Below are positions 9,679 to 44,778 of a stretch of 64,000 nucleotides of DNA, piece by piece (within the stretch, counting starts at the first letter, position 1; every line of letters starts with the position of its first letter). The DNA comes from Candidatus Uhrbacteria bacterium (GTDB lineage: Bacteria; Patescibacteriota; Patescibacteriia; 2-12-FULL-60-25), in contig JAIOPK010000006.1 of NCBI GenBank assembly GCA_021413945.1, positions 1 through 64,000 of the forward strand, given 5' to 3'. The translations under genes were made by a program, and so were the position numbers. Under the pieces are notes generated by a model that searched no databases, was not told the DNA's origin, and was given only the letters and a program-made list of their open reading frames with translations.

Positions 9679-9681
9679 CGG

Positions 9682-9710
9682 TTGACGAAATATCGGCTAT
9701 TAGCCATACT
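9682..9710 (+). promoter_or_regulatory. Promoter of efp
   Basis: TTGACG (9682-9687), 17 nt, CATACT (9705-9710). The start codon of efp begins 9 nt after the -10, so the leader would be only a few bases. Confidence 0.65.
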
Positions 9711-9719
9711 CCCGCCATT

Positions 9720-10283: not shown

Positions 10284-10296
10284 TCGATACAAACAA

Positions 10297-10325
10297 AAAA
10301 CCCTCCGAGCGGAGGGTTTTTTGTT
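10297..10325. terminator. Bidirectional terminator between efp and the S-layer-like gene
   Basis: AAAACCCTCCG and CGGAGGGTTTT pair around a short loop, with A-tract and T-tract on either side, so it can act for both convergent genes. Confidence 0.85.
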
Positions 10326-10333
10326 TGTTCTTA

Positions 10334-27268: not shown

Positions 27269-28018
27269 ATGCTTAAGCGCTGGTTGGCGCTGGTTACGAT
27301 TTTGGTCGGAATGATTCCGGCTGGTTTGGTTTTGGCGGAAAATGCTTCCAGTCCAAATTTTCAGAATACGGATTCCTCGATCATTCCCCTCATCATCAAT
27401 ACCGTTTCCGCGAATTTCATCATTGATGGTTCCGTTAGCCCAATTGTCGGTACAGCGGCGAGTGCAAATTTAATTGTAGAAAGCGGACCGCAGAGTGATC
27501 CGGGCAATCCGCCCGTTGTTATTCCGCCTGTTATCCCTCCTCCGAGCGGCGGGGGAGGAGGTGGTGGCGGTATTCCGATTCCGGTTCCGGTACCATCGGG
27601 ACCGTTGCTTGAGCCGCCGCCAACTATTGACCCGCGTCGATGGACATACAAATCAACAGCAATGGTGCAGGGAAATCGCGGTGTGACGAATGCGGAAATC
27701 TATTTGAATGGCTCCAACGTCGATATTGTTTATCCGAATGCAGACCGTTGGTCGCGCGTTCTTCCGCTCGGACTTGGCGATAATACTTTGGTTCTTCAGT
27801 CCAAACAGGGTGACCGAGCCTCAATTCTCGTGTACGGTATGGTGCATCGGAGGCTGATTGGTGACGTTAACGATAATAGAATCGTTGATGATGTGGACCT
27901 TTCGCTATTCACTCGACATTGGAAGGCTTTTGACATCCAGAGTGACTTTGATGAAGACGGACTCATCGACGACGTGGACCTTTCACTCTTGGCAAGCCAT
28001 TGGGGCAAATCCTACTAA
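27269..28018 (+). CDS. Secreted protein with C-terminal type I dockerin-like domain
   Basis: 249 residues. A signal peptide (MLKRWLALVTILVGMIPAG...LA) is followed by an N-terminal part (about 25-75), a flexible Pro/Gly-rich linker (about 80-118), a beta-rich domain (about 123-190) and a dockerin-like pair of Ca2+ loops at the C-terminus (about 194-249): GDVNDNRIVDDVDLSLF and SDFDEDGLIDDVDLSLL. Both loops keep the D-x-N/D-x-N/D...D ligand pattern (positions 1, 3, 5, 12) and the following LSL helix, with the same D-V pair at the recognition positions 10-11. Dockerins bind cohesins tightly. The next gene encodes a cohesin-like membrane protein. TATACT lies 6 nt before ATG 27269. Confidence 0.82.
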   Translation: MLKRWLALVTILVGMIPAGLVLAENASSPNFQNTDSSIIPLIINTVSANFIIDGSVSPIVGTAASANLIVESGPQSDPGNPPVVIPPVIPPPSGGGGGGGGIPIPVPVPSGPLLEPPPTIDPRRWTYKSTAMVQGNRGVTNAEIYLNGSNVDIVYPNADRWSRVLPLGLGDNTLVLQSKQGDRASILVYGMVHRRLIGDVNDNRIVDDVDLSLFTRHWKAFDIQSDFDEDGLIDDVDLSLLASHWGKSY

Positions 28019-28029
28019 ATACAAAAACT

Positions 28030-29229
28030 ATGAAATATCGGTTCTTTCTCGCCTCGCTCCTCCTGTTTATCCCGCAGGTGGCGTTTGCGGCTAGCGCAGG
28101 ATTGTCGGCGCCCGCGGAGGTTCAAGTAGGTCGGACGTTTCAAGTCCGAATGAACATTGGCGGTGCCAAGGATACCGATACGGTACGATTTATCGGTTCT
28201 TTTCCTACGGAATTCCTTGAATTTCAGGGGATGGCTAATGGATCGTCCTTGCCGACGCGATCTCCCGGATCCGGTGCTTCTGGGGGAACCTTTAACTTCG
28301 GAGGATTCTCATTGGGAAATCCGGTGAGCGGAAATCAACTTGCGGGTATTTTGACATTTAAAGCAAAAAAAGTCGGAACAGCGACGATTTCACTTGTTGG
28401 GGGGACGCGTATTTTATCGGCAGGTACGGATCAGCTAACGGGGAAAGGGAGCGTGACGATTAAGATTGTGGAAGGCCCTGCGCCAGGCGAGATCCCGGTT
28501 AAACCTCCGGAGAAAACCACGATCGATCTTTTTAGTAATACACATCCCGACCAAGATGAGTGGTATTCATCGCGTGTATTGCATTTAGGGTGGAAATTGG
28601 GCGGGAAACAGCCGATTTCCGTAACCGTCGGCTTTGATCAAGCGCCGGAAGGTCCGGCGGAAACGAACGCCGTTTCTACGAGTAGCGCCATGTTTACGGC
28701 GCCGTCAGATGGTGTTTGGTACGGTCATTTAGTGTTGCGCTACTCGGCGAGCGATGTTGTACGAAAGGATTTCCGTTATCTCGTCGACGGAACGGCTCCG
28801 CGTCCGATGGCTGTGGCCGTCGATCAAACTGATGTACGTCCCGGAACACCAAATTATCTCCGTTTCGCAGCCCTGGATGATGCATCAGGTATCGAATCCT
28901 ACGAAATCAGCATTAATGATAAATTTGTAACGTCGACAAGCGAACAATCTTATTCGTTGATCGATTATCCGGCAGGGGAGTATCGCGTGAGTGTAAAAGC
29001 AAAGGATTTTGCCGGCAATGTTTCTCAAGGTGTAGCGGAATTCCGTTTGATCGAGGCAGGTCCTTCGCTTCCTACCGTCAGCCGTATTCAAACGATGCAA
29101 GAATGGCTGCTTCGTCTCGCATTAGCCTTCTTCATCGGCGTTCTCCTGTTTATTATCGGGTTTTTGATCGGGAAAAAGAAGAAGAAGGATGCAAAAGCCG
29201 CGCTCAAGAGTCGATCGAAGAAAAGTTAA
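28030..29229 (+). CDS. Membrane-anchored cohesin-like surface protein
   Basis: 399 residues. A signal peptide (FFLASLLLFIPQVAFA) precedes a domain at about 22-155 with the cohesin profile: an opening AEVQVGRTFQVRMNIGG, FPTEFLEFQGM, GTFNFGGFS and GILTFKAKKVGTATISLVGGT. Ig-like beta domains follow (about 165-350, with the FAALDDASGIESYEISINDK region). Near the C-terminus is one TM helix (LLRLALAFFIGVLLFIIGFLIG, about 360-381) and a Lys-rich cytoplasmic tail. The protein is thus fixed in the membrane and exposes the cohesin-like domain. It starts 11 nt after the dockerin gene, so both are one operon. No Shine-Dalgarno is seen. Cohesin identity is by pattern and context. Confidence 0.78.
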   Translation: MKYRFFLASLLLFIPQVAFAASAGLSAPAEVQVGRTFQVRMNIGGAKDTDTVRFIGSFPTEFLEFQGMANGSSLPTRSPGSGASGGTFNFGGFSLGNPVSGNQLAGILTFKAKKVGTATISLVGGTRILSAGTDQLTGKGSVTIKIVEGPAPGEIPVKPPEKTTIDLFSNTHPDQDEWYSSRVLHLGWKLGGKQPISVTVGFDQAPEGPAETNAVSTSSAMFTAPSDGVWYGHLVLRYSASDVVRKDFRYLVDGTAPRPMAVAVDQTDVRPGTPNYLRFAALDDASGIESYEISINDKFVTSTSEQSYSLIDYPAGEYRVSVKAKDFAGNVSQGVAEFRLIEAGPSLPTVSRIQTMQEWLLRLALAFFIGVLLFIIGFLIGKKKKKDAKAALKSRSKKS

Positions 29230-29318: not shown

Positions 29319-32300
29319 ATGAACCCACTTCGGGAAAATAATTACTACCGGCTTTTCCGCAAGAGTCTTGCGACGGTAGTAGCCCTTGTCCAGTTTTTAG
29401 GCATGGGCGTTTTTCCGAATCTCCCAACGCTTCCGTTTGAGTTTTTACAAGCAATTCCGGCACATGCGGCTATTCCGACAACGCTTGGTTATCAGGGGCG
29501 TTTGAAGAACTCATCGGGCACGGCGTTAACGGGTACGTATTCGTTTACATTCCGTTTGTATGCGGCTTCGAGTGGAGGTACTGCCATGTACACGGAAGTT
29601 CAGCCCTCGGTTTCCGTTGGTGAAGGCTTTTTCTCTGTCTTGCTCGGTTCGGTCACGCCTTTTCCGGCTGGATTTGATTTCAATCAACCGCTGTTTCTGA
29701 CGACGGAAGTGAACGGCGACGGTGAAATGACGCCGCGCATCACGATCAACAGCGTTCCGTACGCCTATACGGCCGGCGGAATCAATTCACAAGGTATCGC
29801 GCCCGTATCGGCATCCGGAGGAAGAATGTATTACAACACGACGGATGCTAGTTTAAATTATTACGACGGGAATGCATCGATGTGGGTGACGCTTGGAGCT
29901 TCGGCATCATCAACGAGTTTGCAGGCGGTTACCAACGTGGGGAATAGCACAACGAATCCGCTTATTTTTGGCGGCGGTACATCGACAGGGAACTTTGCCG
30001 CCATCGGTTATACGATTTCAGCCACAACCGGCACGTTTAGCAATCTTGTCATCAACGGCTCCGTACCTTCCTCGATCACGAACTTTATTTGGACCAATGC
30101 AACGGGTACCAACTCGACCTCGACAAATCTTTATACCGGCAATCTCGGCTTTAATGGCGCAACGGGAACCAATTTGCTGGCGACGGGATCGGTATCGACC
30201 ACGAATCTTTTTGCGAATATCGGTACGTTCGCCACGGCTACCGTCATGGGCCAGGCCATCTGTCTCTCGAACGGTGTCGGCTGTTCCTTTGCCGCCGCCG
30301 GTCTCGACACGCTGCAGTCCGTTTCCGCGAGAGGCGCGTTTACGACAACAACACTCTCGCTCTTTGGAGGAGCGAATGTTTCCACGCTGACGGTCACATC
30401 GACGCTCACCATCTCCGGAACTCTTTCGTCGGATTTAATTCCGACGACGGATCTTGCGTTTAGCCTGGGTAATTCCACGAATCGCTGGAACGGCAATTTT
30501 GGGAACACGACATCGACGAATTCCACATCAACAAATATTTACGCCACGAACGGTACTATTGTAAACTTTGCCGCCACGACCGCTACCATTACCAATTTGA
30601 CCGTGAACGGCACAACGCCCTCCACGTTTACCAACCTCATCTGGACCAATGCGACGGGTACCAACACGACTTCGACCAATTTGTTTGCGACGAATTTGTA
30701 CGGTACGAACTTTGGTTTCACGAATGCGACGGGAGGCTACATGCTCGCCACGACGGTTTCCACCACCAACCTCCTTGTCGGCGGTAACTTGGTTTGTCTC
30801 GCGAACGGCACCAACTGTCCTTCATCGACCGCTGCTAATTTCCAGACCGTGACAAATGCCGGCAACACCACGACCAATGCCATTCAGTTTGCCGGAGGAA
30901 CATCGACGGCTGACTTCGTCTTCAATACGAGCGCGACCGTCAACGGCATTCTGACATTTAACAACGCGACGGGCGCCACGATCACCGCCACGACAGGTAC
31001 CTTCACGAATCTTGTCGTGAACGGTTCCGTGCCTTCCTCCTTCACGAACCTCATTTGGACCAATGCAACCGGCACGAACACGACGTCGACAAATCTCTTC
31101 GCAACCAACCTGTTCTTCACCGGTGCGACCGGTACAAGTCTTGGTATCTCAGGCACCGGTTCATTTGGAACCGTCACATCGTCTAACCTCTTCGCCAACT
31201 TCGGCCAGTTCGCTTCCGCCACCGTAGCTGGACAGGGGATCTGTCTTCAGAACGGCGTCGGTTGTCCGAGCCAAGCAGCAGGACTCGATACGCTCCAGAG
31301 CGTCACCGCTCGCGGATCGTTTACGACGACCACCGTCTCCCTCTTTGGTGGCGCCAATGTTTCGACATTGACTGTCACCTCAACCCTCACCGTGTCCGGT
31401 ACGGTCTCCTCCGACTTCATTCCAACGACCGACCTCGCCTTCTCCCTCGGCAATGCAACGAACCGCTGGAACGGCTACTTTGGAAATACGACATCCACCA
31501 ACTCCACGTCGACGAATTTGTTTGCGACAAACGGAACGATCATCAACCTCACGGCAACCAACGGAACGATCACTTCTCTTCTCGCTACATCCGTCACAAC
31601 AACGAACTTCCTAGCAACTTCCGGCACGATCTCGAACCTCACATTCACGAATGCGACCGGCGTATTCATCACCGCGACAACTGGTACCTTCACCAACCTC
31701 GTCGTGAACGGCACAACGCCTTCATCGTTCACCAACCTCATCTGGACCAATGCGACGGGAACGAATACAACGTCGACCAATTTGTTTGCGACGAATTTGT
31801 ACGGAACCAACTTCGGTTTCACCAATGCCACCGGCGGATACATGCTCGCTACAACGGTTTCCACCACCAACCTACTCGTCGGTGGAAATCTCGTTTGTCT
31901 TGCGAACGGCACCAACTGTCCGAGCGGCACCTCGCCTAATTTCCAGACGGTTACGAATGCAGGCAACACGACCACGAACGCGATTCAGTTTGCCGGGGGA
32001 ACTTCTACGGCGGACTTTGTCTTCAATACGAGCGCGACGGTCAACGGTGTCCTCACGTTCAACAACGCCACCGGTGCAACGATCACCGCCACAACCGGTA
32101 CCTTCACGAATCTCGTCGTGAACGGTGCCGCTCCGTCCTCCTTCACGAACCTCGTCTGGACGAATGCCACAGGCACCAACACCACGTCGACCAATTTGTT
32201 TGCGACCAACCTCGGCTTCACCGGTGCGACCGGCGTGAACATTCTCGCCACGGGATCGGTTTCGACGACCAACCTTTTTGCTAACATCGGTACCTTTGCC

Positions 32301-35300
32301 ACAGCAACGGTCATGGGTCAGGCAATCTGTCTCCAGAATGGTGTTGGCTGTCCGAGCCAAGCAGCCGGCCTGGATACCCTCCAAAGCGTCACAGCTCGAG
32401 GCGCTTTCACCACAACGACGATCTCGCTCTTTGGTGGCGCCAACGTTTCGACGCTCACGGTCACCTCGACCCTCACTGTCTCCGGCACCGTCTCCTCCGA
32501 CTTTATTCCAACCACCGACCTCGCTTTCTCTCTCGGCAACGCCACTAATCGATGGAATGGCTACTTTGGAAACACGACGTCGACTAATTCCACGTCGACC
32601 AACTTGTTTGCGACGAATGGAACCATCATCAATCTCACTGCGACAAACGGCACGATCACCTCGCTCCTCGCGACATCCGTCACCACCACGAACTTCCTTG
32701 CGACGAGCGGCACGATCTCGAATCTTACATTCACGAACGCAACCGGCGTCTTCATCACCGCCACGACCGGTACCTTTACGAACCTCGTCGTGAATGGAAC
32801 GACACCTTCCAGCTTTACCAATCTTATTTGGACGAATGCGACCGGGACGAATACGACATCGACAAATCTATTTGCGACAAACTTGTTTGGTACAAATCTC
32901 GGCTTCACCAATGCGACCGGGGGATACATGCTCGCCACGACGGTCTCGACGACGAATTTGCTTGTTGGCGGCAATTTGGTTTGTCTCGCGAACGGCACCA
33001 ACTGTCCGAGCGGTACCTCGCCTAATTTCCAGACCGTGACGAACGCAGGCAACACCACGACCAATGCCATCCAGTTTGCCGGGGGAACATCGACGGCTGA
33101 CTTTGTCTTTAATACATCCGCCACGGTGAACGGCGTGCTGACGTTTAACAACGCGACGGGCGCCACGATCACCGCCACGACAGGTACCTTCACGAATCTT
33201 GTCGTGAACGGTTCCGTGCCTTCCTCCTACACGAACCTCATTTGGACCAATGCAACCGGCACGAACACGACGTCGACAAATCTCTTCGCAACCAACCTGT
33301 TCTTCACCGGTGCGACCGGTACAAGTCTTGGTATCTCAGACACCGGTTCCTTTGGAACAGTCACCTCGACCAATTTGTTCGCCAACTTCGGCCAGTTCGC
33401 CTCGGCCACGGTTGCCGGACAGGGGATCTGTCTCCAGAACGGCGTCGGTTGTCCGAGCCAGGCGGCAGGTCTCGATACCCTCCAATCCGTCACCGCTCGC
33501 GGATCGTTTACAACCACAACAATCTCTCTCTTTGGCGGTGCCAACGTCTCGACGCTTACCGTCACCTCGACCCTCACCGTCTCCGGCACCGTTTCCTCCG
33601 ATCTCATCCCAACGACCGATCTAGCCTTTTCACTCGGCAATTCGACGAATCGATGGAATGCTACGTTTGGCAACACAACCTCCACCAATTCCACGTCGAC
33701 GAACATTTACGCGACGAACGGCACGATCGTTAACTTCGCCGCCACAACGGCAACGATCACCAACCTCATCGTGAACGGCACGACACCTTCGACATTCACC
33801 AATCTCACTTGGACCAATGCCACCGGTACCAACACAACTTCGACCAACCTCTTCGCCACGAATCTCTTCTTCACCGGTGCCACTGGCACAAGCCTCGGTA
33901 TCTCGGGCACCGGCTCCTTTGGAACGGTCACATCGTCGAACCTCTTTACAAACTCCGCCACATTTGGAACCGCTACGATTTCAGGTCAGGCTGTCTGTCT
34001 CTTGGATGGCACAAACTGTTCCGCCGCGTTCCTCGACACCCTGCAGTCGGTAACGGCGCGCGGATCGTTTACGACGACGACGATGCAGTTCTTTGGAGGA
34101 TTTGTCGCGGCAAGCTCGAGCGTGACGGGTACGTTGAACGTTGCGGGAAGTTTGAATGTCACCGGGAATACGACGCTGAATGGAGCGACGATAACGAATG
34201 CGACGGCCACGAATGTCACAACGACGAATTTGTTTGCCGACAATGCCGCCTTCACGAATCTGACATTGTCGGGTGCTTTGACGGCCACAAACTTGACTTG
34301 GACCAACGCCACCGGAACGAACACGACGTCGACGAATCTCTTTGGAACGAATCTTGGCTTTACCGGAGCCACTGGCGTGAATATCCTCGCCACTGGAAGC
34401 GTCTCCACCACCAACCTCTTTGCAAACTTCGGTCAGTTCGCCTCGGCCACCATCGCCGGACAGGGGATCTGTCTCCAGAATGGCGTCGGTTGTCCGAGTC
34501 AGGCGGCAGGTCTCGACACCCTTCAGAGTGTCACCGCTCGCGGATCGTTCACGACGACCACCGTCTCTCTCTTTGGTGGTGCGAACGTCTCGACATTGAC
34601 GGTCACGTCGACACTCACTGTTTCCGGAACCGTCTCCTCCGATCTCATCCCCACGACGGACCTCGCTTTCTCTCTTGGCAATGCTACGAATCGCTGGAAC
34701 GGCTACTTTGGAAATACCACATCGACGAATTCAACCTCAACGAATGTCTACGCGACGAATGGCAACATTGTTAATTTGTCGAGCGCAACCGCCACGATTA
34801 GCAATCTTGTCGTGAACGGCACAACGCCTTCTACGTTTACGAACCTTATTTGGGTTAATGCGACCGGTACCAATACAACGTCAACAAATTTGTTTGCGAC
34901 GAATCTTGGATTTGAAACGGCTACGGGTACGACGCTGAATACCAACGTTCTGAACTTTGGGACGGGTAGTGCCGGATCATTGAGCGTGAATACGACGCTG
35001 ACATTGAACGGCGTGAATGTCTGTCTACAAGACAATACGAATTGTCCGTCGGTAGGCGGCAGTTCAAGCGACGGAAGCTGGGTGTACAACTCCTCGACAC
35101 AGCAGCTGTATCAAGTCACTTCTTCCTTGGATGTCTTGATCGGTGGATCAAGCGAACCGGGCTCGCCATTTGTCTTTCAGAATAATTCGACCACGAGCCG
35201 CCTGATTATTTCAGGAGGCATTTCTCCGGCGGATGTGACGATCGGTGCCAGTACGTCGAGTGGATTGAATTCCGCTTTCCAGCTTGATGGCGGCAACCTG

Positions 35301-38300
35301 TTTGTCGAGGGGAATATCGGATCGGTTTCATCTGTCTATACGAACGGTGCGTTTATCGCCGGAGGTACGGTGTACGCCGACGGCAGTATCAATAAGACGG
35401 ATGGCAACTTGATTTTGTCGGCATCCGGGGGTTTTATCACGCCGCCTGTCGATTTGTCTGTGAGCCTTGGTTCGTCGGCGCTGCGCTTTAACGGCTACTT
35501 TGGAAATACCACGTCGACCAACTCGACTTCTACGAACCTGTTTGCGACCAATGCGAATTTCACCAATCTGACCGTTTCCTCGTTCTCGCCAACCAATATT
35601 ACCTGGACCAACGCCACGGGTACCAATACAACGTCGACGAATCTCTTTGCCACCAATCTGTTCTTCACCGGCGCCACCGGTACGAGCCTTGGTATCACCG
35701 GCACTGGCTCCTTTGGAACAGTTACATCGTCGAACGTCTTTGCTAACTTTGCCCAATTCGCTTCGGCTACCGTTGCCGGACAGGGGATCTGTCTTCAAAA
35801 CGGTGTTGGTTGTCCGGCCTTCACGTCTGCTGAAGTCGACACCCTCCAATCCGTCACAGCACGAGGTGCCTTCACCACCACCACGCTTTCCCTCTTTGGC
35901 GGCGCAAACGTTTCTACTCTCACCGTCACGTCGACTCTGACTGTCTCCGGCACCGTCTCCTCCGACTTCATTCCGACGACCGATCTCGCGTTTTCGCTCG
36001 GGAATGCCACCAACCGATGGAATGGCTACTTTGGAAACACGACGTCGACCAACTCAACATCGACGAATATCTTTGCCACGAACGGTCTCTTCAACAATGT
36101 GACGGCTACAACCGGAACCTTTACTAATCTTGTTGTTAGCGGACCATCATCGTTTACGAATCTGACCTGGACCAATGCGACGGGCACGAACACGACATCG
36201 ACGAATTTGTTTGCGACGAATCTTTTCTTCACCGGTGCAACTGGTACAAGCCTAGGTATCTCCGGAACCGGTTCATTTGGAACAGCGACCGCTACAAATA
36301 TCTTTGCGAACTTTGGTCAGTTCGCCTCGGCTACGGTCGCAGGGCAGGGGATCTGTCTTCAGAACGGCGTTGGTTGTCCGAGCCAGGCCGGTCTCGACAC
36401 GTTGCAATCCGTCACCGCTCGCGGATCGTTTACCACAACGACCGTTGAGTTCTTTGGAGGATTTGTTGCCGCTTCATCGAGCGTGACGGGTACGTTCGCA
36501 GGACTTGGAAATATCGTCCTTGGCAATGAAACGACCGATGCGATTACGGTCGGAGGCCGCTTCAGTTCCGATCTTGTTCCGACAACAGACCTTGCTAACT
36601 CGCTCGGTATCGCCACCAATCGCTGGAACGCCTATTTTGGAAACACGACATCGACCAATTCAACGAGTACGAATATCTTTGCGACCAACGGATTGTTTAC
36701 CAATGTTACCGCTACGACCGGTACCTTCACTAACCTTGTCGTAAGCGGCCCTTCCAACTTCACAAATATCACGTGGGTGAATGCGACAGGTACTAACACA
36801 ACCTCAACAAATTCCTACGCAACCAACCTGTTCTTCACCGGTGCGACCGGTACAAGCCTCGGTATTTCCGGCACGGGCTCCTTTGGAACAGTGACGTCGT
36901 CGAACCTCTTTGCCAACTTCGGCCAGTTCGCCTCAGCCACCGTCGCCGGACAGGGGATCTGTCTCCAGAACGGTGTTGGTTGCCCAGCTTCCAATGCTAT
37001 TGAGGTCGACACTCTTCAGACTGTGACGGCTCGCGGTGCTTTCACGACGACGACGTTGTCCCTCTTTGGAGGATTTGTCGCCGCATCATCGAGTGTTACA
37101 TCTACCTTTGCCGCGCTTGGAAACATTGCGCTTGGCAATGAAACGACCGATGCGATTACGGTCGGCGGACGATTTAGCTCGGATCTTGTTCCGACAACGG
37201 ATCTTGCTAATTCGCTCGGCAATGCCACTAATCGTTGGAACGGTTACTTCGGCAACACGACATCGACTAATTCCACGTCGACGAATATCTTTGCGACCAA
37301 TGGTTTATTCACCAACGTAACGGCAACGACTGGAACATTCACGAACCTTGTCGTGAGCGGCCCGTCATCGTTTACGAATCTGACCTGGACCAATGCAACG
37401 GGTACAAACACAACGTCGACGAACATGTTCGCGACAAATCTGTTCTTCACCGGCGCCACAGGCACGAGCCTCGGTATCTCCGGTACCGGCTCATTCGGAA
37501 CGGTCACCTCGACCAATTTGTTTGCCAACTTCGGTCAGTTCGCCTCGGCCACGGTTGCCGGACAGGGGATTTGTCTCCAGAACGGTATCGGTTGTCCGAG
37601 CCAAGCAGCCGGCCTCGACACATTGCAGAGCGTGACGGCACGCGGATCGTTTACGACGACCACTGCCCAATTCTTTGGAGGATTTGTTGCGGCGAGCTCG
37701 AGTGTCACAGGAACCTTTGCCGGACTCGGCAACATTACCCTCGGCAATGACACGGCCGATGCTATCACCGTCGGCGGTCGCTTTAGCTCGGATCTTGTTC
37801 CGACGACCGACCTCGCTAACTCGCTCGGTATCGCCACCAACCGATGGAATGGTTACTTTGGGAATACGACATCGACCAACTCCACATCGACGAATCTCTT
37901 TGCGACGAACGGTTTCTTCACGAATCTCACGGCAACCACCGCTACGATCACCAACCTCGTCGTGAACGGCACAACGCCTGCCGCCTTCACGAACATCACG
38001 TGGACCAATGCGACGGGCGTGAATACGACGAGTACGAATTTGTTCGCGACGAACCTCTTTTATACGGGTGCCACCGGTACCAATCTTGCCTCGACCGGAC
38101 TGTTCACGTTCTCGACTGCAACGGGAACGACCATCCGTGCAAATACCGGCAACTTTGGTCAGTTCACATCTAATAACGTCACGATCGGCGGTGGAACGAT
38201 TAACAATACGAGTATCGGAGCAACCACGCCTTCCACCGGTGTCTTTACGCATACAACGACGACGAATCTCTGGGTTACTGGCAACGTCTATTCAAACTTG

Positions 38301-41300
38301 ATCCCGATTACGGACCTCGGCTTCACGCTCGGCAACGCTACGAATCGCTGGAATGGTTACTTCGGTAATACAACATCGACCAACTCAACGTCGACCAACT
38401 TCTTTGCGACGAATGGTTATTTCACCAATTTGACAGCCTCCTCGTTTGCACCGACCAACTTGACTTGGACGAATGCGACAGGCATCAACACAACCTCGAC
38501 CAATTTGTTCGCAACGAACTTGTTCTTCACAGGAGCTACAGGTACGAGTCTCGGTATCACCGGCACCGGCTCATTCGGAACAGTCACTTCGACCAACCTG
38601 TTTGCTAACTTCGGCCAGTTCGCTTCCGCCACCGTTGCCGGACAGGGGATTTGTTTGCAGAACGGTATCGGTTGTCCGAGCTTCACCGCGACAGAAACGG
38701 ATACGCTCCTTACCGTTTCCAACCGCGGTGCCGTTGCGACATCGACGCTGACATTGTTTGGAGGCTTCGTCGCGGCTTCCTCGAGCGTGACGGGAACACT
38801 GCGTGTTGCCGGCGCGTTGACCGTGACCGGGGCTTCGTCCTTGCAAGGCTTTACCTTCACGAATGGAACAGGAACAAACGTTACGAGCACGAACGCTTTT
38901 ATCACCAACCTCGGCTTCCTCGGCGCTACCGGTACAACGTTACAAACCAGCGTCTACGTCTCCTCCTCCAACCTCTTTGCCAACTTTGGCCAGTTCGCCT
39001 CGGCCACCGTCGCCGGACAGGGGATCTGTTTGCAGAATGGTGTTGGTTGTCCTGTATCGGCCGGTCTCGACACGCTTCAGAGCGTGACGGCCCGCGGGTC
39101 GTTTACGACCACAACTGCCCAGTTCTTTGGAGGATTTACCGCCGCGAGCTCGTCTGTGACGGGCACGCTTACCGTTGCCGGCGCGCTGACCGTGACGGGC
39201 GCATCTTCCTTACAAGGTTTTACCTTCACGAATGGAACGGGAACAAATGTTACGAGTACGAATATTGCCGCAACAGGCTTGCTGACGTTTGGAACGGCGA
39301 CAGGTACAAGTTTGTTTGTCACCGGTCTCTCGCGTTTGGATGGGACGACGATGATGAATGCGACAGCGACCAATGTGACGTCTACCGGCATGTACGGCTC
39401 GTACCTTGGTTTCCTCGGCGCTACTGGTACCACTCTTCAGACGAGCGTATACGTCTCCTCATCTAACCTCTTCGCTAACTTCGGCCAGTTCGCCTCGGCG
39501 ACCGTCGCCGGACAGGGGATTTGTCTCCAGAACGGCGTTGGTTGTCCGGCCTCGGGAGCAGCCAGTCTTGAAACATTGTTAACCGTTTCAAATCGCGGAT
39601 CCATCGCCACTTCCACCCTCACTCTCTTTGGTGGATTCGTGGCCGCTTCCTCGAGCGTGACGGGAACGCTGCGTGTTGTTGGTAACTTTATTACAACCGC
39701 GTCTTCATCGCTTGCGGCATTTACCTTTACCAATACGACCGGTACGAATCTCTACTTGGCCGGCAATGTCTTCTCCAATCTCATCCCTTCAACCGACCTT
39801 GCGTTCTCGCTTGGTAATGACACGAACCGCTGGAATGCGACATTCGGCAATGTTACCGCCACCAATGTCACGACAACAAATTTGACCGTCACCGGGAACT
39901 TCTCCGTTTCCAGTACGCAACTGCAAATGAATAACCAAGGCAATCCCTTTGGTTCCGCGTTGCTTGCCGGTGCATTCATCGATCAAAACTCCGCCATTTT
40001 GGAAGAATTCAGCAAAATGCAGACCTCTAAATCCGTGGATACGACAGGTGCTGGTAACGCCGGCTTTGGAGATGGTGGAGGTTGGGGTGTCTATGAAGGT
40101 TCTGTTTGTACATTTTCCTCTCCGAATGACGCGGCCGGCGGTATCGTGAACATTTCCGCAAACAGTGCCGGGAACGGTTGTCTCATGATGCTCGATGAAG
40201 CCGCGAATGATATTCGTGGCATTCTTGATGCGGACTTTTTGCCTGTGATCTATACGAAGGTACAGCCTTCGGTGACGAGCAGTCGAAACTATATTTTCGT
40301 CGGTGCAGGCAATGCGACCGACGGAGCCGTTGTGACATCGACCAACTTTATCGGGTTTACTAACGGAGGCGACAAGATTTGGCAGGGAGTCACCATTTCC
40401 GGAGGAACGGCCACACTTGTGCCTTGTACCGGACTTTCAATCCCGACGTCCACGTATTCCCTTCTCCTTGTAGAAGTACGTTCTACAACCTCCGTACGTT
40501 TCAGCGTCGATACGGATCCGACAGATGGCGTCAACATGACTGTTTGCGGCACGGCGACGACAAATATTCCGACGATCCCGCTCGCACCCCAGTTCCAGTA
40601 TCAGGTGAGAACGGGAGGTACGGTGGGTTCGCTGAACGTGGACTTCTTCCGTGCATGGCAGGATGACCCGCCGGGCGGCGGCAGTGAAGGCCTAGGTGCG
40701 GCTTCCAATAATTTTGTGACTCGTTCCGCGCTTGTCCAGGAATTCCCGGCCGACAACTTGGACTTGGAATCGGGAACGGTCGTATCCATCGATACGTCGA
40801 CGACGACGATGCGTGCCATGCCGTCCAACATCGGGTATGACCCGAATTTCCTTGGAGTCGTGGTTAATAGCGCTGACCCGGGCCTCATTCTGTCCAACGG
40901 TTCCTTTGAAGGTATTCGTGTCGCGACACAGGGTCGCGTGTACGCAACGGTTTCCAACGAAAACGGAGATATCGTGGCAGGCGACGTCTTGACCACAGCC
41001 GCCTCCAATACGGGTGCGCTTATGAAGGCTACGGGTCCCGGCCCTTCCATCGGAAAAGCGTTGAGTAGCTTCACGAGCGCTACGAGCTCGGCTACAGGCA
41101 CGGCGCTTGTCATCATCCAACCGATGTATTACACGCCTTCGTCAAACGGCGTCTATGACAGGCTCCGCGCTGTCGGTTACTTGTCTGTCGGCGACAGCGA
41201 AGCACCTGCCGTCGGTGCCTCCGCCATCGCTCAATTTGCCGCTACGACAGATGCCTATCTCCAGATCAACCTCCAGAACTTCTCGACAGGCACCAGTGCC

Positions 41301-43793
41301 TCGGGGGATTATGTGGTGACGGCAGACAATGGTGATGACTCCAGCTATTTCATCGACATGGGTATCAATGGATCGAATTATGCGAATCCGGATTATTCCA
41401 TCGGGGGACCCAATGACGGTTATCTGTATGTGAATGGCGGTGATCTGGCACTAGGTACCGCGAGCTCGGCAGATATTCTCTTCCACACCGGCGGAACGCT
41501 TGTGGAAAATGAGCGCATGCGGGTCACGTCGGACGGACGTGTCGGTATCGGAACATCCGCACCTTCATCGACCTTGCATGTGGTCGGGGATACGACCCTG
41601 GATACGCTTGCGTTCACCGATGCGACGGGTACAAGTCTCAACTTGATTGCCTCGTTGAACGTCGGAGGAGATCTCACTGTGACCGGCAGTACTACTCTGC
41701 AGAATGTCACGGCCGTCAATGCGGTGTTTACGGGTGTTACGACAACCAACCTCGCCGTTACCGGACTGGTTTCCGTCGCTGATCTGACCGTTGGCGGAAA
41801 GCGCGTTTGTTTGGAAGATGGAACCAACTGTTCGATCGGGGCAACCAAGAGCGCGTCTTCTTCTGCCTCGGTTTCCGTCGGTGCGGAAACGGAATTGCTG
41901 GTCGTTACAACGACGCCATCCTTTGTCTCAAACGCGGTATGGATTTCCGCCGATGCGCGCGCCGCCAACGCCGATGGCTCCGCGTCGTCGACCGTGACTC
42001 TGCGCATCCGCCGAGGCGATACGTGTTTGAGCGGTGTTCAAGTCGGCGTCGATCGAACGGTAGAGGTCGGAGCCGCCGATTCCGATACGATTTCGACGAG
42101 CTTTGTCGATAGCCCCGCTACGACAAACGCTACGGCATACCGCTTGTGTGCTCTCGGCTCCGGTGGAACGCCGACCGTGACCAACCGATCGATGATGGTC
42201 CAGCTCATCAAACAGGGTGCCGACTTGGGTGAAGTCTATTACACGTCCGATCACAGCATCGATCCAGGAACCGTCGTTTCCATTGATGCCAGCGGAGAAG
42301 CGCTCGTACAGAAGTCCGGTCAGGCTTACGACGACAAGGTGCTCGGTATCATTTCCACGCGCCCGGGTCTTTTGCTTGCGGAACAGCCTAAGGCCGATGG
42401 AACACCGGTCATTGTCGCGCTTTCCGGCCGCGTTCCCGTGAAGGTCACGACGAGCAACGGCAAGATTGAAGCGGGGGATTATCTGACGGCTTCACCGGTT
42501 GCCGGAGTTGCCATGAAGGCAACTAAGGCCGGATTCGTGATCGGTCAGGCCCTGATGCCGTACGATGCCGATGAGGATGGAGAAGTCGTCGTGTTTATCA
42601 AGAACGGCATGTGGAATGGCCAGGTTGTAGCGGAAATGCGTTCCGGTACGGGTCGCTCAGTGCTCATGAGTACGTTGAATGCAGTTGCTTCCGTCAACCA
42701 GGCCACATCGACAGCTTCTGTCATGTCGCTCGATCGTCTTGTCGCGAGCGGAGACGTGGTGGCCGCATCGCTTGTTTCGCAGGATTTGTCCGTGCAGATG
42801 ATCGAGGCATTGAACGGATCGCTGACGATGCAGATCGGAGCGACGGGTACTTGGTCGCTTGTGTCGGAGGGCTCGTCCTCGTCCATCATGACAATTGATG
42901 CGAGCGGTATCCTCGATTTGAACGGTACGTTGATCGCAAGCCATGTCAGCTCGACTCGTATGACGACGGATCAGTTGATTGCCATCGACATCCAGTCGCC
43001 GGTGATTGATGCGATGCGCGAGGCTCTTGGAACTTCCTCTAGTACGGTTACCGACCTCGCGAATCGCGCAACAGAGATGACCAACCGACTCTTAGATGTC
43101 GAGAATCGTTTGAGTGTATTAACGGAGACGGCAAGCTCGACGGCGATGGGCCTCGATGTCGACCAGCTCCGCGTCGCACAAGGCTTGGAGGTCCAAGGCG
43201 AGATCCGCGCTCCTGGTGGGTTGCGCGTCGATCGTCTCTCGAGTATCGCCGATCTTCTGACGATCGCAACGGACATTGAAATGACGGGATCGATCACGGT
43301 TAACAAGGACACGGCCGGATTCGCAGTCATCAAGACGGGTATGCGACGTATGCGTATCACGTTCGATCGTCCGTATGTGGTCATGCCGGTGGTACAGTTG
43401 AGCGTGAACTTCAAACAGTTGGAAGATGAAGAGCTTGGACAAGAGGAATTGCGTATTCAGAACTACTTTGATCAGAACATGCGATATGTCGTGACGCATG
43501 TCACCAAGGAAGGATTCGATATTCTCCTCGACAAGCAGGCACAGCAAGATGTGCGATTCAGCTGGATCGCTTTGGCACCTAAGAACGCGGAGGAGCTCAT
43601 CTCGCAGGAAATCCTTGGAGCTACTCCTGAACCGGCCCCCGAGCCTGCTCCTGCACCAGCACCAGAGCCAACGCCGGAGCCGGTACCCGAACCGACTCCC
43701 GAACCGACTCCCGCTCCTGAACCGGCCCCCGAGCCCGCTCCTGCGCCAGCACCAGAGCCCGCTCCTGCGCCAGCTCCCGAACCAGCCCCGTAA
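29319..43793 (+). CDS. Giant (4,824-residue) repetitive fibre-like surface protein
   Basis: N-terminus: a long signal-like hydrophobic segment (about 15-45) and a beta domain (about 52-150; YQGRLKNSSGTALTGTYSFTFRLY). About residues 195-3530 are Thr/Asn/Ser-rich tandem repeats built from phrases such as ATGTNTTSTNLFATN and NATNRWNGYFGNTTSTNST. DTLQSVTARG-type unit heads occur 13 times, and a C-x6-C loop (CLQNGVGC) 18 times in all. A ConA/LamG-like beta domain may lie at about 3550-3785. Next come two related beta modules (about 3800-3950 and 4290-4400), VGIGTSAPSSTLHV (about 4075) as in phage-tail-like fibres, a short coiled coil (about 4570-4605), a terminal beta domain and a Pro/Glu/Ala tail (about 4770-4824). 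No C-terminal TM helix is seen. It probably forms a long, possibly trimeric, surface fibre; attachment is unknown. Confidence 0.8.
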   Translation: MNPLRENNYYRLFRKSLATVVALVQFLGMGVFPNLPTLPFEFLQAIPAHAAIPTTLGYQGRLKNSSGTALTGTYSFTFRLYAASSGGTAMYTEVQPSVSVGEGFFSVLLGSVTPFPAGFDFNQPLFLTTEVNGDGEMTPRITINSVPYAYTAGGINSQGIAPVSASGGRMYYNTTDASLNYYDGNASMWVTLGASASSTSLQAVTNVGNSTTNPLIFGGGTSTGNFAAIGYTISATTGTFSNLVINGSVPSSITNFIWTNATGTNSTSTNLYTGNLGFNGATGTNLLATGSVSTTNLFANIGTFATATVMGQAICLSNGVGCSFAAAGLDTLQSVSARGAFTTTTLSLFGGANVSTLTVTSTLTISGTLSSDLIPTTDLAFSLGNSTNRWNGNFGNTTSTNSTSTNIYATNGTIVNFAATTATITNLTVNGTTPSTFTNLIWTNATGTNTTSTNLFATNLYGTNFGFTNATGGYMLATTVSTTNLLVGGNLVCLANGTNCPSSTAANFQTVTNAGNTTTNAIQFAGGTSTADFVFNTSATVNGILTFNNATGATITATTGTFTNLVVNGSVPSSFTNLIWTNATGTNTTSTNLFATNLFFTGATGTSLGISGTGSFGTVTSSNLFANFGQFASATVAGQGICLQNGVGCPSQAAGLDTLQSVTARGSFTTTTVSLFGGANVSTLTVTSTLTVSGTVSSDFIPTTDLAFSLGNATNRWNGYFGNTTSTNSTSTNLFATNGTIINLTATNGTITSLLATSVTTTNFLATSGTISNLTFTNATGVFITATTGTFTNLVVNGTTPSSFTNLIWTNATGTNTTSTNLFATNLYGTNFGFTNATGGYMLATTVSTTNLLVGGNLVCLANGTNCPSGTSPNFQTVTNAGNTTTNAIQFAGGTSTADFVFNTSATVNGVLTFNNATGATITATTGTFTNLVVNGAAPSSFTNLVWTNATGTNTTSTNLFATNLGFTGATGVNILATGSVSTTNLFANIGTFATATVMGQAICLQNGVGCPSQAAGLDTLQSVTARGAFTTTTISLFGGANVSTLTVTSTLTVSGTVSSDFIPTTDLAFSLGNATNRWNGYFGNTTSTNSTSTNLFATNGTIINLTATNGTITSLLATSVTTTNFLATSGTISNLTFTNATGVFITATTGTFTNLVVNGTTPSSFTNLIWTNATGTNTTSTNLFATNLFGTNLGFTNATGGYMLATTVSTTNLLVGGNLVCLANGTNCPSGTSPNFQTVTNAGNTTTNAIQFAGGTSTADFVFNTSATVNGVLTFNNATGATITATTGTFTNLVVNGSVPSSYTNLIWTNATGTNTTSTNLFATNLFFTGATGTSLGISDTGSFGTVTSTNLFANFGQFASATVAGQGICLQNGVGCPSQAAGLDTLQSVTARGSFTTTTISLFGGANVSTLTVTSTLTVSGTVSSDLIPTTDLAFSLGNSTNRWNATFGNTTSTNSTSTNIYATNGTIVNFAATTATITNLIVNGTTPSTFTNLTWTNATGTNTTSTNLFATNLFFTGATGTSLGISGTGSFGTVTSSNLFTNSATFGTATISGQAVCLLDGTNCSAAFLDTLQSVTARGSFTTTTMQFFGGFVAASSSVTGTLNVAGSLNVTGNTTLNGATITNATATNVTTTNLFADNAAFTNLTLSGALTATNLTWTNATGTNTTSTNLFGTNLGFTGATGVNILATGSVSTTNLFANFGQFASATIAGQGICLQNGVGCPSQAAGLDTLQSVTARGSFTTTTVSLFGGANVSTLTVTSTLTVSGTVSSDLIPTTDLAFSLGNATNRWNGYFGNTTSTNSTSTNVYATNGNIVNLSSATATISNLVVNGTTPSTFTNLIWVNATGTNTTSTNLFATNLGFETATGTTLNTNVLNFGTGSAGSLSVNTTLTLNGVNVCLQDNTNCPSVGGSSSDGSWVYNSSTQQLYQVTSSLDVLIGGSSEPGSPFVFQNNSTTSRLIISGGISPADVTIGASTSSGLNSAFQLDGGNLFVEGNIGSVSSVYTNGAFIAGGTVYADGSINKTDGNLILSASGGFITPPVDLSVSLGSSALRFNGYFGNTTSTNSTSTNLFATNANFTNLTVSSFSPTNITWTNATGTNTTSTNLFATNLFFTGATGTSLGITGTGSFGTVTSSNVFANFAQFASATVAGQGICLQNGVGCPAFTSAEVDTLQSVTARGAFTTTTLSLFGGANVSTLTVTSTLTVSGTVSSDFIPTTDLAFSLGNATNRWNGYFGNTTSTNSTSTNIFATNGLFNNVTATTGTFTNLVVSGPSSFTNLTWTNATGTNTTSTNLFATNLFFTGATGTSLGISGTGSFGTATATNIFANFGQFASATVAGQGICLQNGVGCPSQAGLDTLQSVTARGSFTTTTVEFFGGFVAASSSVTGTFAGLGNIVLGNETTDAITVGGRFSSDLVPTTDLANSLGIATNRWNAYFGNTTSTNSTSTNIFATNGLFTNVTATTGTFTNLVVSGPSNFTNITWVNATGTNTTSTNSYATNLFFTGATGTSLGISGTGSFGTVTSSNLFANFGQFASATVAGQGICLQNGVGCPASNAIEVDTLQTVTARGAFTTTTLSLFGGFVAASSSVTSTFAALGNIALGNETTDAITVGGRFSSDLVPTTDLANSLGNATNRWNGYFGNTTSTNSTSTNIFATNGLFTNVTATTGTFTNLVVSGPSSFTNLTWTNATGTNTTSTNMFATNLFFTGATGTSLGISGTGSFGTVTSTNLFANFGQFASATVAGQGICLQNGIGCPSQAAGLDTLQSVTARGSFTTTTAQFFGGFVAASSSVTGTFAGLGNITLGNDTADAITVGGRFSSDLVPTTDLANSLGIATNRWNGYFGNTTSTNSTSTNLFATNGFFTNLTATTATITNLVVNGTTPAAFTNITWTNATGVNTTSTNLFATNLFYTGATGTNLASTGLFTFSTATGTTIRANTGNFGQFTSNNVTIGGGTINNTSIGATTPSTGVFTHTTTTNLWVTGNVYSNLIPITDLGFTLGNATNRWNGYFGNTTSTNSTSTNFFATNGYFTNLTASSFAPTNLTWTNATGINTTSTNLFATNLFFTGATGTSLGITGTGSFGTVTSTNLFANFGQFASATVAGQGICLQNGIGCPSFTATETDTLLTVSNRGAVATSTLTLFGGFVAASSSVTGTLRVAGALTVTGASSLQGFTFTNGTGTNVTSTNAFITNLGFLGATGTTLQTSVYVSSSNLFANFGQFASATVAGQGICLQNGVGCPVSAGLDTLQSVTARGSFTTTTAQFFGGFTAASSSVTGTLTVAGALTVTGASSLQGFTFTNGTGTNVTSTNIAATGLLTFGTATGTSLFVTGLSRLDGTTMMNATATNVTSTGMYGSYLGFLGATGTTLQTSVYVSSSNLFANFGQFASATVAGQGICLQNGVGCPASGAASLETLLTVSNRGSIATSTLTLFGGFVAASSSVTGTLRVVGNFITTASSSLAAFTFTNTTGTNLYLAGNVFSNLIPSTDLAFSLGNDTNRWNATFGNVTATNVTTTNLTVTGNFSVSSTQLQMNNQGNPFGSALLAGAFIDQNSAILEEFSKMQTSKSVDTTGAGNAGFGDGGGWGVYEGSVCTFSSPNDAAGGIVNISANSAGNGCLMMLDEAANDIRGILDADFLPVIYTKVQPSVTSSRNYIFVGAGNATDGAVVTSTNFIGFTNGGDKIWQGVTISGGTATLVPCTGLSIPTSTYSLLLVEVRSTTSVRFSVDTDPTDGVNMTVCGTATTNIPTIPLAPQFQYQVRTGGTVGSLNVDFFRAWQDDPPGGGSEGLGAASNNFVTRSALVQEFPADNLDLESGTVVSIDTSTTTMRAMPSNIGYDPNFLGVVVNSADPGLILSNGSFEGIRVATQGRVYATVSNENGDIVAGDVLTTAASNTGALMKATGPGPSIGKALSSFTSATSSATGTALVIIQPMYYTPSSNGVYDRLRAVGYLSVGDSEAPAVGASAIAQFAATTDAYLQINLQNFSTGTSASGDYVVTADNGDDSSYFIDMGINGSNYANPDYSIGGPNDGYLYVNGGDLALGTASSADILFHTGGTLVENERMRVTSDGRVGIGTSAPSSTLHVVGDTTLDTLAFTDATGTSLNLIASLNVGGDLTVTGSTTLQNVTAVNAVFTGVTTTNLAVTGLVSVADLTVGGKRVCLEDGTNCSIGATKSASSSASVSVGAETELLVVTTTPSFVSNAVWISADARAANADGSASSTVTLRIRRGDTCLSGVQVGVDRTVEVGAADSDTISTSFVDSPATTNATAYRLCALGSGGTPTVTNRSMMVQLIKQGADLGEVYYTSDHSIDPGTVVSIDASGEALVQKSGQAYDDKVLGIISTRPGLLLAEQPKADGTPVIVALSGRVPVKVTTSNGKIEAGDYLTASPVAGVAMKATKAGFVIGQALMPYDADEDGEVVVFIKNGMWNGQVVAEMRSGTGRSVLMSTLNAVASVNQATSTASVMSLDRLVASGDVVAASLVSQDLSVQMIEALNGSLTMQIGATGTWSLVSEGSSSSIMTIDASGILDLNGTLIASHVSSTRMTTDQLIAIDIQSPVIDAMREALGTSSSTVTDLANRATEMTNRLLDVENRLSVLTETASSTAMGLDVDQLRVAQGLEVQGEIRAPGGLRVDRLSSIADLLTIATDIEMTGSITVNKDTAGFAVIKTGMRRMRITFDRPYVVMPVVQLSVNFKQLEDEELGQEELRIQNYFDQNMRYVVTHVTKEGFDILLDKQAQQDVRFSWIALAPKNAEELISQEILGATPEPAPEPAPAPAPEPTPEPVPEPTPEPTPAPEPAPEPAPAPAPEPAPAPAPEPAP
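30957..31162 (+). repeat. Near-identical block, copy 1
   Basis: 206 bp matching 33144-33349 with two differences (offset 2,187 nt), much closer than other units. Confidence 0.85.
33144..33349 (+). repeat. Near-identical block, copy 2
   Basis: Partner of 30957-31162; the two base changes alter F to Y and G to D. Confidence 0.85.
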
Positions 43794-43842: not shown

Positions 43843-44619
43843 ATGATTAAGCGCACATCTGCGTCCAGAACAAAGAAAGTCGTCATGGAAGAGCCCATGG
43901 TGTCGACGACGACCACCCCTCCAAAGGGGACCGGTACTTCGCGGGCAATTCCGATTGTGATCGCCCTGGTTTTGGTCGTTGGAGGAGTCGGTTATTTCGT
44001 GAATGCGGCCATGAAAGGGAAGACGAGTGCCGATGTTACGCAGGGACAAATCGGAGAAGGTGTTAACGCCGAGGAAGTGAACAAGACGATTGAGCGAGTT
44101 CGTTCATTAACCGTCACAACAGCCGATGAGTTTCCGACGGTAGCGACGATTCAGAATATTTCGATTTTGCGCCCACAGAACCCGACGCTGTATCGCGATG
44201 CGGAGAATGGCGACAAGCTGCTTGTTTGGTCGGACAAGGTCGTGGTGTATTCCGCGAACAAGGATCGCTTGCTCGTTGTGATGCCGATCAATATCCCGCC
44301 GACGGTGTCCGCACCCGTTGCCGCAGCAACAGTAACGGAAGAGCCAACGGTGACGCTTGAAGTAAGAAACGGTTCGGCGACGCTTGGCGTCGCGCGCGTC
44401 CTCAGTGAAAAATTAAAGGGCGAAGGATTCAAAACATTAGCTCCGGGTGATGCAAAGAATAAATTATATGCGTCGACGGTGATCTATAATGCCACCGGAA
44501 AAACGATTCCAAATACGCTCGAGAAACTGGTTGCGTCGACCGGAGGAACGGTCGTAGATTCTCTTGAAGGGGAGAGGGAAAGCAAAGCGGACCTGTTGAT
44601 AATTGTTGGAGGAAAATAA
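43843..44619 (+). CDS. Membrane protein with LytR C-terminal (LytR_C) domain
   Basis: 258 residues. A short cytoplasmic N-terminus with Ser/Thr/Pro is followed by one TM helix (AIPIVIALVLVVGGVGYFVNAA, about 35-56) and an outside part. The region 165-258 reads as LytR_C: TVTLEVRNGSATLGVARVLSEKL, EGFKTLAPGDAKNK, STVIYN, and KADLLIIVGGK at the end. LytR_C accompanies LCP-type enzymes that attach glycopolymers to peptidoglycan, but also occurs alone as here; the LCP catalytic domain is absent. It lies 49 nt after the giant gene with its own TGT-TATACT promoter, and a terminator follows. A role at the cell wall is likely. Confidence 0.8.
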   Translation: MIKRTSASRTKKVVMEEPMVSTTTTPPKGTGTSRAIPIVIALVLVVGGVGYFVNAAMKGKTSADVTQGQIGEGVNAEEVNKTIERVRSLTVTTADEFPTVATIQNISILRPQNPTLYRDAENGDKLLVWSDKVVVYSANKDRLLVVMPINIPPTVSAPVAAATVTEEPTVTLEVRNGSATLGVARVLSEKLKGEGFKTLAPGDAKNKLYASTVIYNATGKTIPNTLEKLVASTGGTVVDSLEGERESKADLLIIVGGK

Positions 44620-44642
44620 CAGGTACAAAACGTGTTCATAAG

Positions 44643-44675
44643 AAAATCTCCCTGAGCATAGGGAGATTTTCTTTT
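44643..44675 (+). terminator. Intrinsic terminator
   Basis: AAAATCTCCCT and AGGGAGATTTT form an 11-bp stem around GAGCAT, followed by CTTTTAC. Confidence 0.85.
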
Positions 44676-44712
44676 ACTGTATCCGGATCGTGTTCAATCG
44701 AGAAAAGAGGCA

Positions 44713-44741
44713 TTGAAAAAGGCTTGAAAAAATGATATTAT
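44713..44741 (+). promoter_or_regulatory. Promoter of the SpoIID-domain gene
   Basis: TTGAAA (44713-44718), 17 nt, TATTAT (44736-44741). Confidence 0.7.
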
Positions 44742-44778
44742 AGGTAGTATCGGAAAGCGGAAAGCAGAAAATAAATAC

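What the first reader, a model, noticed from the sequence alone, without database searches (positions are those of the whole stretch)
27269..29229. Two-gene operon of a secreted dockerin protein and a membrane-anchored cohesin-like protein
The first gene ends in two well-kept Ca2+ loops of a type I dockerin with identical residues at the recognition positions; the next, 11 nt away, encodes a cohesin-pattern domain on a C-terminal membrane anchor. No carbohydrate enzyme is nearby, so this is not a cellulosome. The simplest reading is a Ca2+-dependent plug and socket that holds a secreted protein, or with it the 4,824-residue protein, on the cell surface.
Basis: partly seen in the sequence, partly recalled or inferred. 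Interest (0 to 1): 0.82.

Follow-up and report, generated by a model that had tools for sequence, protein, structure and literature searches.

The report
Bacterial surface plug-and-socket gene pair
This tiny bacterium carries side by side the genes for a secreted protein with a calcium-binding 'plug' (dockerin) and a membrane protein with the matching 'socket' (cohesin), and the same neighbouring pair recurs across its whole phylum, which points to a common but little-described way in which these bacteria hold proteins on their surface.

Summary
Gene 1 (27269-28018) is secreted and ends in a type I dockerin. Gene 2 (28030-29229), 11 nt later, is a cohesin, Ig-like domains and a C-terminal membrane anchor. 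Both domains score below Pfam's cut-offs in the window proteins alone, but relatives match clearly (Dockerin_1 8/8, best 1e-8; Cohesin 13/16, best 1.5e-9). AlphaFold2 models of orthologous domains give the cohesin fold (best Z 18.2; the first 49 rows are cohesins). Two dockerin-cohesin chains read through the stop codon, only 25% identical to each other, give pTM 0.82 and 0.81. About 0.61 is expected if undocked, so docking is predicted, not measured.

The pair is not a local oddity. Cohesin relatives occur in 137 of 381 genomes of the phylum. In 40 loci chosen without regard to dockerins, the gene directly upstream encodes a dockerin in 33; other positions give 5 of 272. Dockerin proteins are secreted with the dockerin at the C-terminus; cohesin proteins are mostly membrane-anchored. 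No cellulosome is present. In close relatives a specific giant gene accompanies the pair.

Best reading: a Ca2+-dependent surface-anchoring pair like Archaeoglobus ORF2375/2376, whose binding has been measured, here phylum-wide and membrane-anchored. New variant of a known kind. Binding, calcium dependence and cargo need experiments.

The parts
27269..28018 (+). P1, secreted dockerin protein (249 aa)
   Evidence: ORF; one N-terminal hydrophobic segment and no other; orthologues in 7 further Uhrbacteria loci
27269..27340 (+). P1 signal peptide (approximate)
   Evidence: sequence MLKRWLALVTILVGMIPAGLVLAE; hydrophobicity peak at residue 4
27344..27505 (+). P1 N-terminal repeats of the type SSxNF/SANF, about residues 26-79, then a Pro/Gly-rich linker
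   Evidence: conserved in all 8 orthologues; the motif occurs at least twice in 11 of 48 dockerin proteins examined
27623..27847 (+). P1 Ig-like domain (about residues 119-193)
   Evidence: PF09136 Glucodextran_B in 3 of 8 orthologues; Big_6/Big_13 in many more distant dockerin proteins
27848..28015 (+). P1 type I dockerin (residues 194-249, to the C-terminus)
   Evidence: AlphaFold2 of the orthologue, which is 80% identical over this domain
27863..27898 (+). Ca2+ loop 1, DVNDNRIVDDVD
   Evidence: sequence; alignment A2
27944..27979 (+). Ca2+ loop 2, DFDEDGLIDDVD
   Evidence: sequence; alignment A2
28030..29229 (+). P2, membrane-anchored cohesin protein (399 aa)
   Evidence: ORF; homologues in 12 of 41 family genomes
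28093..28494 (+). P2 cohesin domain (residues 22-155)
   Evidence: Pfam Cohesin in 13 of 16 relatives; predicted fold of the orthologue (62% identical), best match 2vo8 Z 18.2, rmsd 2.0, 129 aligned
28822..29034 (+). P2 Ig-like domain (residues 265-335)
   Evidence: Big_7 / OmpL47-type matches below cut-off; conserved in the alignment
29095..29157 (+). P2 C-terminal transmembrane segment, followed by a Lys-rich tail (29158-29226)
   Evidence: hydrophobicity peak at residue 356; 75 of 87 cohesin-only proteins have a hydrophobic segment after the cohesin
29319..43793 (+). Giant repetitive secreted protein (4,824 aa); linked gene, its physical part in the complex not shown
   Evidence: N-terminal head 60-69% identical only to the copies next to P1-P2 in relatives, 37-47% to copies elsewhere; H-type lectin match near the C-terminus just under the cut-off

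Best explanation
P1 and P2 are a two-part surface-anchoring device. P2 is exported and stays in the cytoplasmic membrane by its C-terminal helix, with its Ig-like stalk and cohesin domain facing outwards. P1 is exported and released; its C-terminal dockerin folds on binding Ca2+ in its two loops and docks into the cohesin of P2, so that the N-terminal part of P1 (SSxNF repeats, Pro/Gly linker, Ig domain) is displayed non-covalently on the cell surface. The giant protein encoded next is probably displayed or assembled with the pair. Shown here: gene order and its conservation, domain identities, predicted cohesin fold, secretion and membrane signals. Predicted: docking of the two domains. Inferred: Ca2+ dependence, outward topology, cargo and biological role.
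For: Cohesin fold: the first 49 rows are cohesins, best 2vo8 Z 18.2; repeated for a distant pair. Docking: pTM 0.82 and 0.81 in single chains with a disordered linker; arithmetic gives about 0.61 if the dockerin were not placed and 0.80-0.83 if docked. Linkage: in 40 loci chosen by cohesin score, the gene at position -1 is a dockerin in 33 of 40, against 5 of 272 at all other positions; 35 of 40 have a dockerin gene upstream on the same strand within 1 kb. Co-occurrence over 381 genomes: 75 of 137 cohesin genomes also have a dockerin, against 51 of 244 others, odds ratio 4.6, p=2e-11 (phylogeny not corrected, and the strict Pfam threshold misses dockerins such as those of G095, G212, G248 and G282). 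Exclusivity: G036, G013 and G002 have one dockerin, directly upstream of their P2 homologue. Architecture: 46 of 48 dockerin proteins have an N-terminal hydrophobic segment, 46 of 48 no other, and the dockerin ends at the C-terminus in nearly all; 82 of 87 cohesin proteins have an N-terminal hydrophobic segment and 75 of 87 a further one after the cohesin. Precedent: the A. fulgidus ORF2375 dockerin and ORF2376 cohesin bind strongly and specifically (PMC9705933); its cohesin 2xdh matches our model at Z 16.0.
Against: No binding was measured. AlphaFold2 was trained on cohesin-dockerin complexes and may dock any such pair; a decoy control failed at the alignment step. Coordinates and PAE were not available, so the interface residues were not checked. 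The models are of orthologues. The window genome holds two further dockerin proteins, one of them a dockerin-cohesin adaptor, so cross-binding is possible. 12 of 87 cohesin proteins have no detected membrane segment after the cohesin (some are cut off at contig ends, some have the segment before it).
Confidence: 0.78

Rival explanations
1. Both domains are real, but their main partners are elsewhere: the dockerin of P1 binds another cohesin (for example the dockerin-cohesin adaptor at C2:251328-252401), and the cohesin of P2 holds other dockerin proteins.
For: The window genome has three dockerins and at least two cohesins. Some genomes have many dockerins (G108 about 12).
Against: Several genomes with the pair have a single dockerin, directly upstream of the cohesin (G036, G013, G002). 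Adjacency is conserved across the phylum.
Confidence: 0.12
2. P2's domain is a cohesin-like beta-sandwich that serves as a stalk or binds host or matrix glycans, and the P1 loops only stabilise a secreted protein with Ca2+; the two proteins work together without docking.
For: The nearest solved folds include cohesin modules of Clostridium perfringens glycoside hydrolases and, at low rank, an adhesin domain (9ifr). Sequence scores of the window domains alone are weak.
Against: Predicted docking in two distant pairs; a dockerin, rather than any other Ca2+ protein, is directly upstream in 33 of 40 loci; the dockerin sits at the free C-terminus nearly throughout.
Confidence: 0.08
3. A degenerate or incomplete cellulosome: remnants of a carbohydrate-degrading complex.
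For: Type I dockerin and cohesin domains; a few distant dockerin proteins carry a polysaccharide deacetylase or a glycoside hydrolase domain.
Against: No scaffoldin with tandem cohesins and no enzyme near the window pair; most dockerin partners are Ig-domain proteins; conservation of loops and order argues against decay.
Confidence: 0.02

Closest known systems
Archaeoglobus fulgidus ORF2375 (dockerin) / ORF2376 (cohesin), non-cellulosomal pair (PDB 2xdh; Voronov-Goldman 2011, used in PMC9705933)
   Same: Consecutively numbered ORFs; C-terminal dockerin in one, N-terminal cohesin in the other; no cellulosome; our model matches the 2xdh cohesin (Z 16.0); binding of that pair is reported as strong and specific
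   Different: An archaeon; here a bacterial phylum, with a membrane-anchored cohesin, one to four cohesin genes, and a giant secreted protein linked in Uhrbacteria
Clostridial cellulosome type I cohesin-dockerin (1ohz, 2vn5 and others)
   Same: Same two folds; duplicated Ca2+ loops with the same residues at positions 10-11, compatible with dual binding
   Different: No scaffoldin with tandem cohesins, no carbohydrate-binding module and no enzymes near the pair; cargo is an Ig-domain protein
Dockerin and cohesin proteins of ANME archaea (PMC9012536)
   Same: Non-cellulosomal use of both domains
   Different: There dockerins sit on substrate-binding proteins and up to five cohesins share a chain; here a compact gene pair with a single cohesin in each membrane protein
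Dockerin-domain protein SEML1_0315 of Southlakia epibionticum, Saccharibacteria (PMC10633639)
   Same: Same phylum; a dockerin protein of the cell envelope, found essential by Tn-seq
   Different: There read as aimed at host glycans; no cohesin is mentioned in the paper's text, and its neighbouring genes could not be inspected here

Membership tests
Type I dockerin (PF00404) | two F-hand Ca2+ loops with D at positions 1 and 12 and D/N at 3 and 5 | tested here: met
   DVNDNRIVDDVD and DFDEDGLIDDVD; Dockerin_1 matches 8 of 8 orthologues; window protein alone below cut-off, 18.2 against 22.9 bits
Type I dockerin (PF00404) | near-symmetric duplication with matching recognition residues | tested here: met
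   D-V at positions 10-11 of both loops, LSLxxxxHW-type sequence after both; positions 17-18 differ
Cohesin (PF00963) | nine-stranded jelly-roll cohesin fold | tested here: met
   model of the orthologous domain (62% identical): the first 49 rows are cohesins, best Z 18.2, rmsd 2.0, 129 aligned
Cohesin (PF00963) | sequence match to the family profile | tested here: met
   13 of 16 relatives, best 1.5e-9; window domain alone E=0.005, below cut-off
Cohesin-dockerin pair | the two domains form a complex | tested here: inconclusive
   AlphaFold2 pTM 0.82 and 0.81 in fused orthologous pairs; no measurement, no decoy control
Cohesin-dockerin pair | Ca2+ dependence | not testable with these tools
   inferred from the loops only
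Cellulosome | scaffoldin with several cohesins and dockerin-bearing carbohydrate enzymes | tested here: not met
   one cohesin in P2; no enzyme among the main window ORFs; dockerin partners are mostly Ig proteins
A. fulgidus ORF2375/2376-type non-cellulosomal pair | adjacent genes, one with a dockerin and one with a cohesin, outside a cellulosome | tested here: met
   precedent described in PMC9705933; common descent of the two arrangements was not tested

The most novel reading that the evidence does not exclude
Patescibacteria as a phylum use a dedicated, Ca2+-controlled cohesin-dockerin latch as a general way of displaying surface proteins, each operon holding one secreted plug and one to four membrane sockets. 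In Uhrbacteria it carries a giant lectin-tipped fibre used for contact with a host cell, and the essential dockerin protein of Saccharibacteria (SEML1_0315) is the plug of such a latch rather than a glycan-targeting protein.
Probability: 0.3. Interest if true: 0.82.

Novelty: new variant of a known kind. Interest (0 to 1): 0.64.

Why it matters
How the ultra-small Patescibacteria attach proteins to their surface, and themselves to hosts, is an open question. A widespread dockerin-cohesin operon with a fixed order offers a concrete, testable anchoring mechanism that could be switched with calcium, gives many new candidate binding pairs, and suggests a different reading of a dockerin gene already found essential in a cultivated epibiont (PMC10633639). 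In the searches of the held papers no report of this operon in the phylum was found; subscription papers are largely missing from that library.

Tried and rejected
Cellulosome: rejected, no enzymes or scaffoldin. Solved-structure search with the cohesin profile A1: no hit at E<=0.01, so cohesin identity rests on Pfam and fold. Phmmer of the window proteins alone: only marginal dockerin hits. Decoy docking control with a natural cohesin-dockerin single chain (L062): abandoned because the alignment split the cohesin. Modelling the window pair itself as one chain: not done, the genes lie in different frames; orthologous same-frame pairs were used instead. Apparent dockerin in the same-genus genome G012: a partial hit with an internal stop in a region of unrelated ORFs, taken as spurious. 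A cohesin in the frame-broken protein L004:8231-9871: not supported (hhalign probability 3%). Peer et al. 2009 was not held.

Full report
OBSERVATION. P1 (27269-28018, 249 aa) and P2 (28030-29229, 399 aa) lie on the + strand, 11 nt apart, followed by a 4,824-aa ORF at 29319-43793. P1 has an N-terminal hydrophobic segment, SSxNF-type repeats, a Pro/Gly linker, an Ig-like region, and at the very C-terminus two loops DVNDNRIVDDVD and DFDEDGLIDDVD. P2 has an N-terminal hydrophobic segment, a cohesin-pattern domain, an Ig-like domain, one C-terminal hydrophobic segment and a Lys-rich tail.

FAMILY EVIDENCE. The genome (1.05 Mb, 23 contigs) belongs to Ca. Uhrbacteria by inference: the closest P2 relative (62%) is in a record titled Ca. 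Uhrbacteria, whose 38,032-base contig corresponds to the same-genus genome G013. P2 homologues occur in 12 of 41 genomes of the family. In seven further loci (L022-L028) a P1 orthologue precedes the P2 orthologue. Dockerin_1 matches 8 of 8 P1 orthologues, best 1.2e-8; Cohesin matches 13 of 16 P2-type domains, best 1.5e-9; the P1 profile hits solved dockerins at 6e-5 to 2.5e-4.

FOLD AND DOCKING. In L023 (dockerin 80%, cohesin 62% identical to the window's) the two genes are in one frame, so the DNA read through the stop codon gives dockerin, signal peptide as linker, and cohesin as one chain. With an alignment of 79 rows, AlphaFold2 gave mean pLDDT 90.2 and pTM 0.82, with both domains above 90 nearly throughout and the linker disordered. 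Foldseek and VIA-align put cohesins in the first 49 rows, best 2vo8 (Z 18.2, rmsd 2.0, 129 residues), including the A. fulgidus non-cellulosomal cohesin 2xdh (Z 16.0). A second pair, L048, 25% identical to the first, gave pLDDT 89.8 and pTM 0.81, again with cohesin matches. From the definition of pTM, a chain of this length with an unplaced dockerin should score about 0.61 and a docked one about 0.80-0.83. So docking is predicted in both. This does not show specificity, because AlphaFold2 has seen such complexes; a decoy control could not be aligned, and coordinates and PAE were not available.

THE PAIR IS PHYLUM-WIDE. The cohesin profile found relatives in 137 of 381 genomes of the phylum. 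Forty loci were fetched by cohesin score and contig size only, and dockerins were then sought with a profile that used no sequence from these loci. The gene immediately upstream is a dockerin protein in 33 of 40, against 5 of 272 at the other positions; 35 of 40 have a dockerin gene upstream on the same strand within 1 kb, often overlapping or a few nt away. Many operons have one dockerin gene followed by two to four cohesin genes. Genome-level co-occurrence is strong (75/137 against 51/244, odds ratio 4.6, p=2e-11), though not corrected for phylogeny. Of 48 dockerin proteins, 46 have an N-terminal hydrophobic segment, 46 have no other, and the dockerin ends the chain in nearly all; of 87 cohesin-only proteins, 82 have an N-terminal hydrophobic segment and 75 a further one after the cohesin. 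Thus secreted plug and membrane-anchored socket is the general pattern. G036, G013 and G002 have just one dockerin, directly upstream of their P2 homologue.

THE GIANT PROTEIN. Its N-terminal head is 60-69% identical to heads of giant proteins encoded directly next to P1-P2 in G013, G002, G036, G014 and both copies in G006, but only 37-47% to those elsewhere in these genomes and in the same-genus genome G012, which lacks P2. So a specific giant gene travels with the pair in Uhrbacteria. It contains no dockerin or cohesin that was detected; near its C-terminus there is an H-type lectin match just under the cut-off, and the L023 copy has endosialidase-chaperone domains. Relatives of its C-terminal part lie near the operon in several other genomes. 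How, or whether, it is attached to P1 or P2 is unknown.

MECHANISM. Most likely: P2 sits in the membrane with its cohesin outside; P1 is secreted and docks by its dockerin in a Ca2+-dependent way, which displays its N-terminal part on the surface. Shown: genes, conservation, domains, fold prediction. Predicted: docking. Inferred: calcium, topology, cargo, role.

COMPARISON. A. fulgidus ORF2375 (dockerin at 432-506) and ORF2376 (cohesin at 29-162) are a non-cellulosomal pair with strong, specific binding (PMC9705933), so the principle is known. ANME archaea use both domains outside cellulosomes (PMC9012536). In Saccharibacteria a dockerin protein, SEML1_0315, is essential and was interpreted as glycan-directed (PMC10633639); the present data suggest looking for a cohesin gene beside it, which could not be done here. 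In the searches of the held papers no description of the operon in Patescibacteria was found.

VERDICT. New variant of a known kind; its main interest is the unexpected breadth and fixed order across the phylum.

Noticed in passing
L004:11329-12402 (G000:C2:251328-252401): One protein with an N-terminal hydrophobic segment, a dockerin over Pfam's cut-off and a cohesin (hhalign 7.5e-10 to A1): an adaptor-like dockerin-cohesin chain in the same genome.
   Followed up: partly
L004:6955-8229: A second secreted protein with a weak C-terminal dockerin (17.9 bits), directly before a frame-broken surface protein.
   Followed up: partly
L004:8231-11347: A large surface protein split over three ORFs (8231-9871, 9844-10389, 10391-11347), suggesting sequencing frame errors or a decayed gene; no cohesin supported.
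   Followed up: partly
window 42000-43793 and L023:3900-9005: H-type lectin-like match near the end of the giant protein; the L023 copy has Peptidase_S74 (endosialidase chaperone) domains, as in phage tail fibres.
   Followed up: partly
window 27344-27505; L038, L040, L045, L046, L049, L050, L054, L056, L060: Repeated SSxNF/SSTNY-type motif at the N-terminus of many dockerin proteins, with no Pfam family; perhaps a shared assembly or display module.
   Followed up: partly
L030:3647-5398 and other long cohesin proteins (L031, L032, L035): Long cohesin proteins have, after the membrane segment, a charged, probably helical tail of up to about 100 residues, likely cytoplasmic; a possible link from surface to cell interior.
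   Followed up: no
L029:9899-10411 (G013): A lone 170-aa cohesin protein, about 50% identical to P2's domain, without a membrane segment after the cohesin and away from any detected dockerin.
   Followed up: no
L071:4391-5983; A4 members: One dockerin protein next to a cohesin gene appears to carry a polysaccharide deacetylase; one member of the set has a GH39 match, so some relatives may display enzymes.
   Followed up: no
G108 (L077-L079): One 0.8 Mb genome has about 12 dockerin matches, several in neighbouring genes; it may display many proteins.
   Followed up: no
window 43843-47190: After the giant gene: a LytR_C-domain protein (a relative is also near the pair in L023 and L026) and an Ig-rich SpoIID/LytB protein.
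   Followed up: partly
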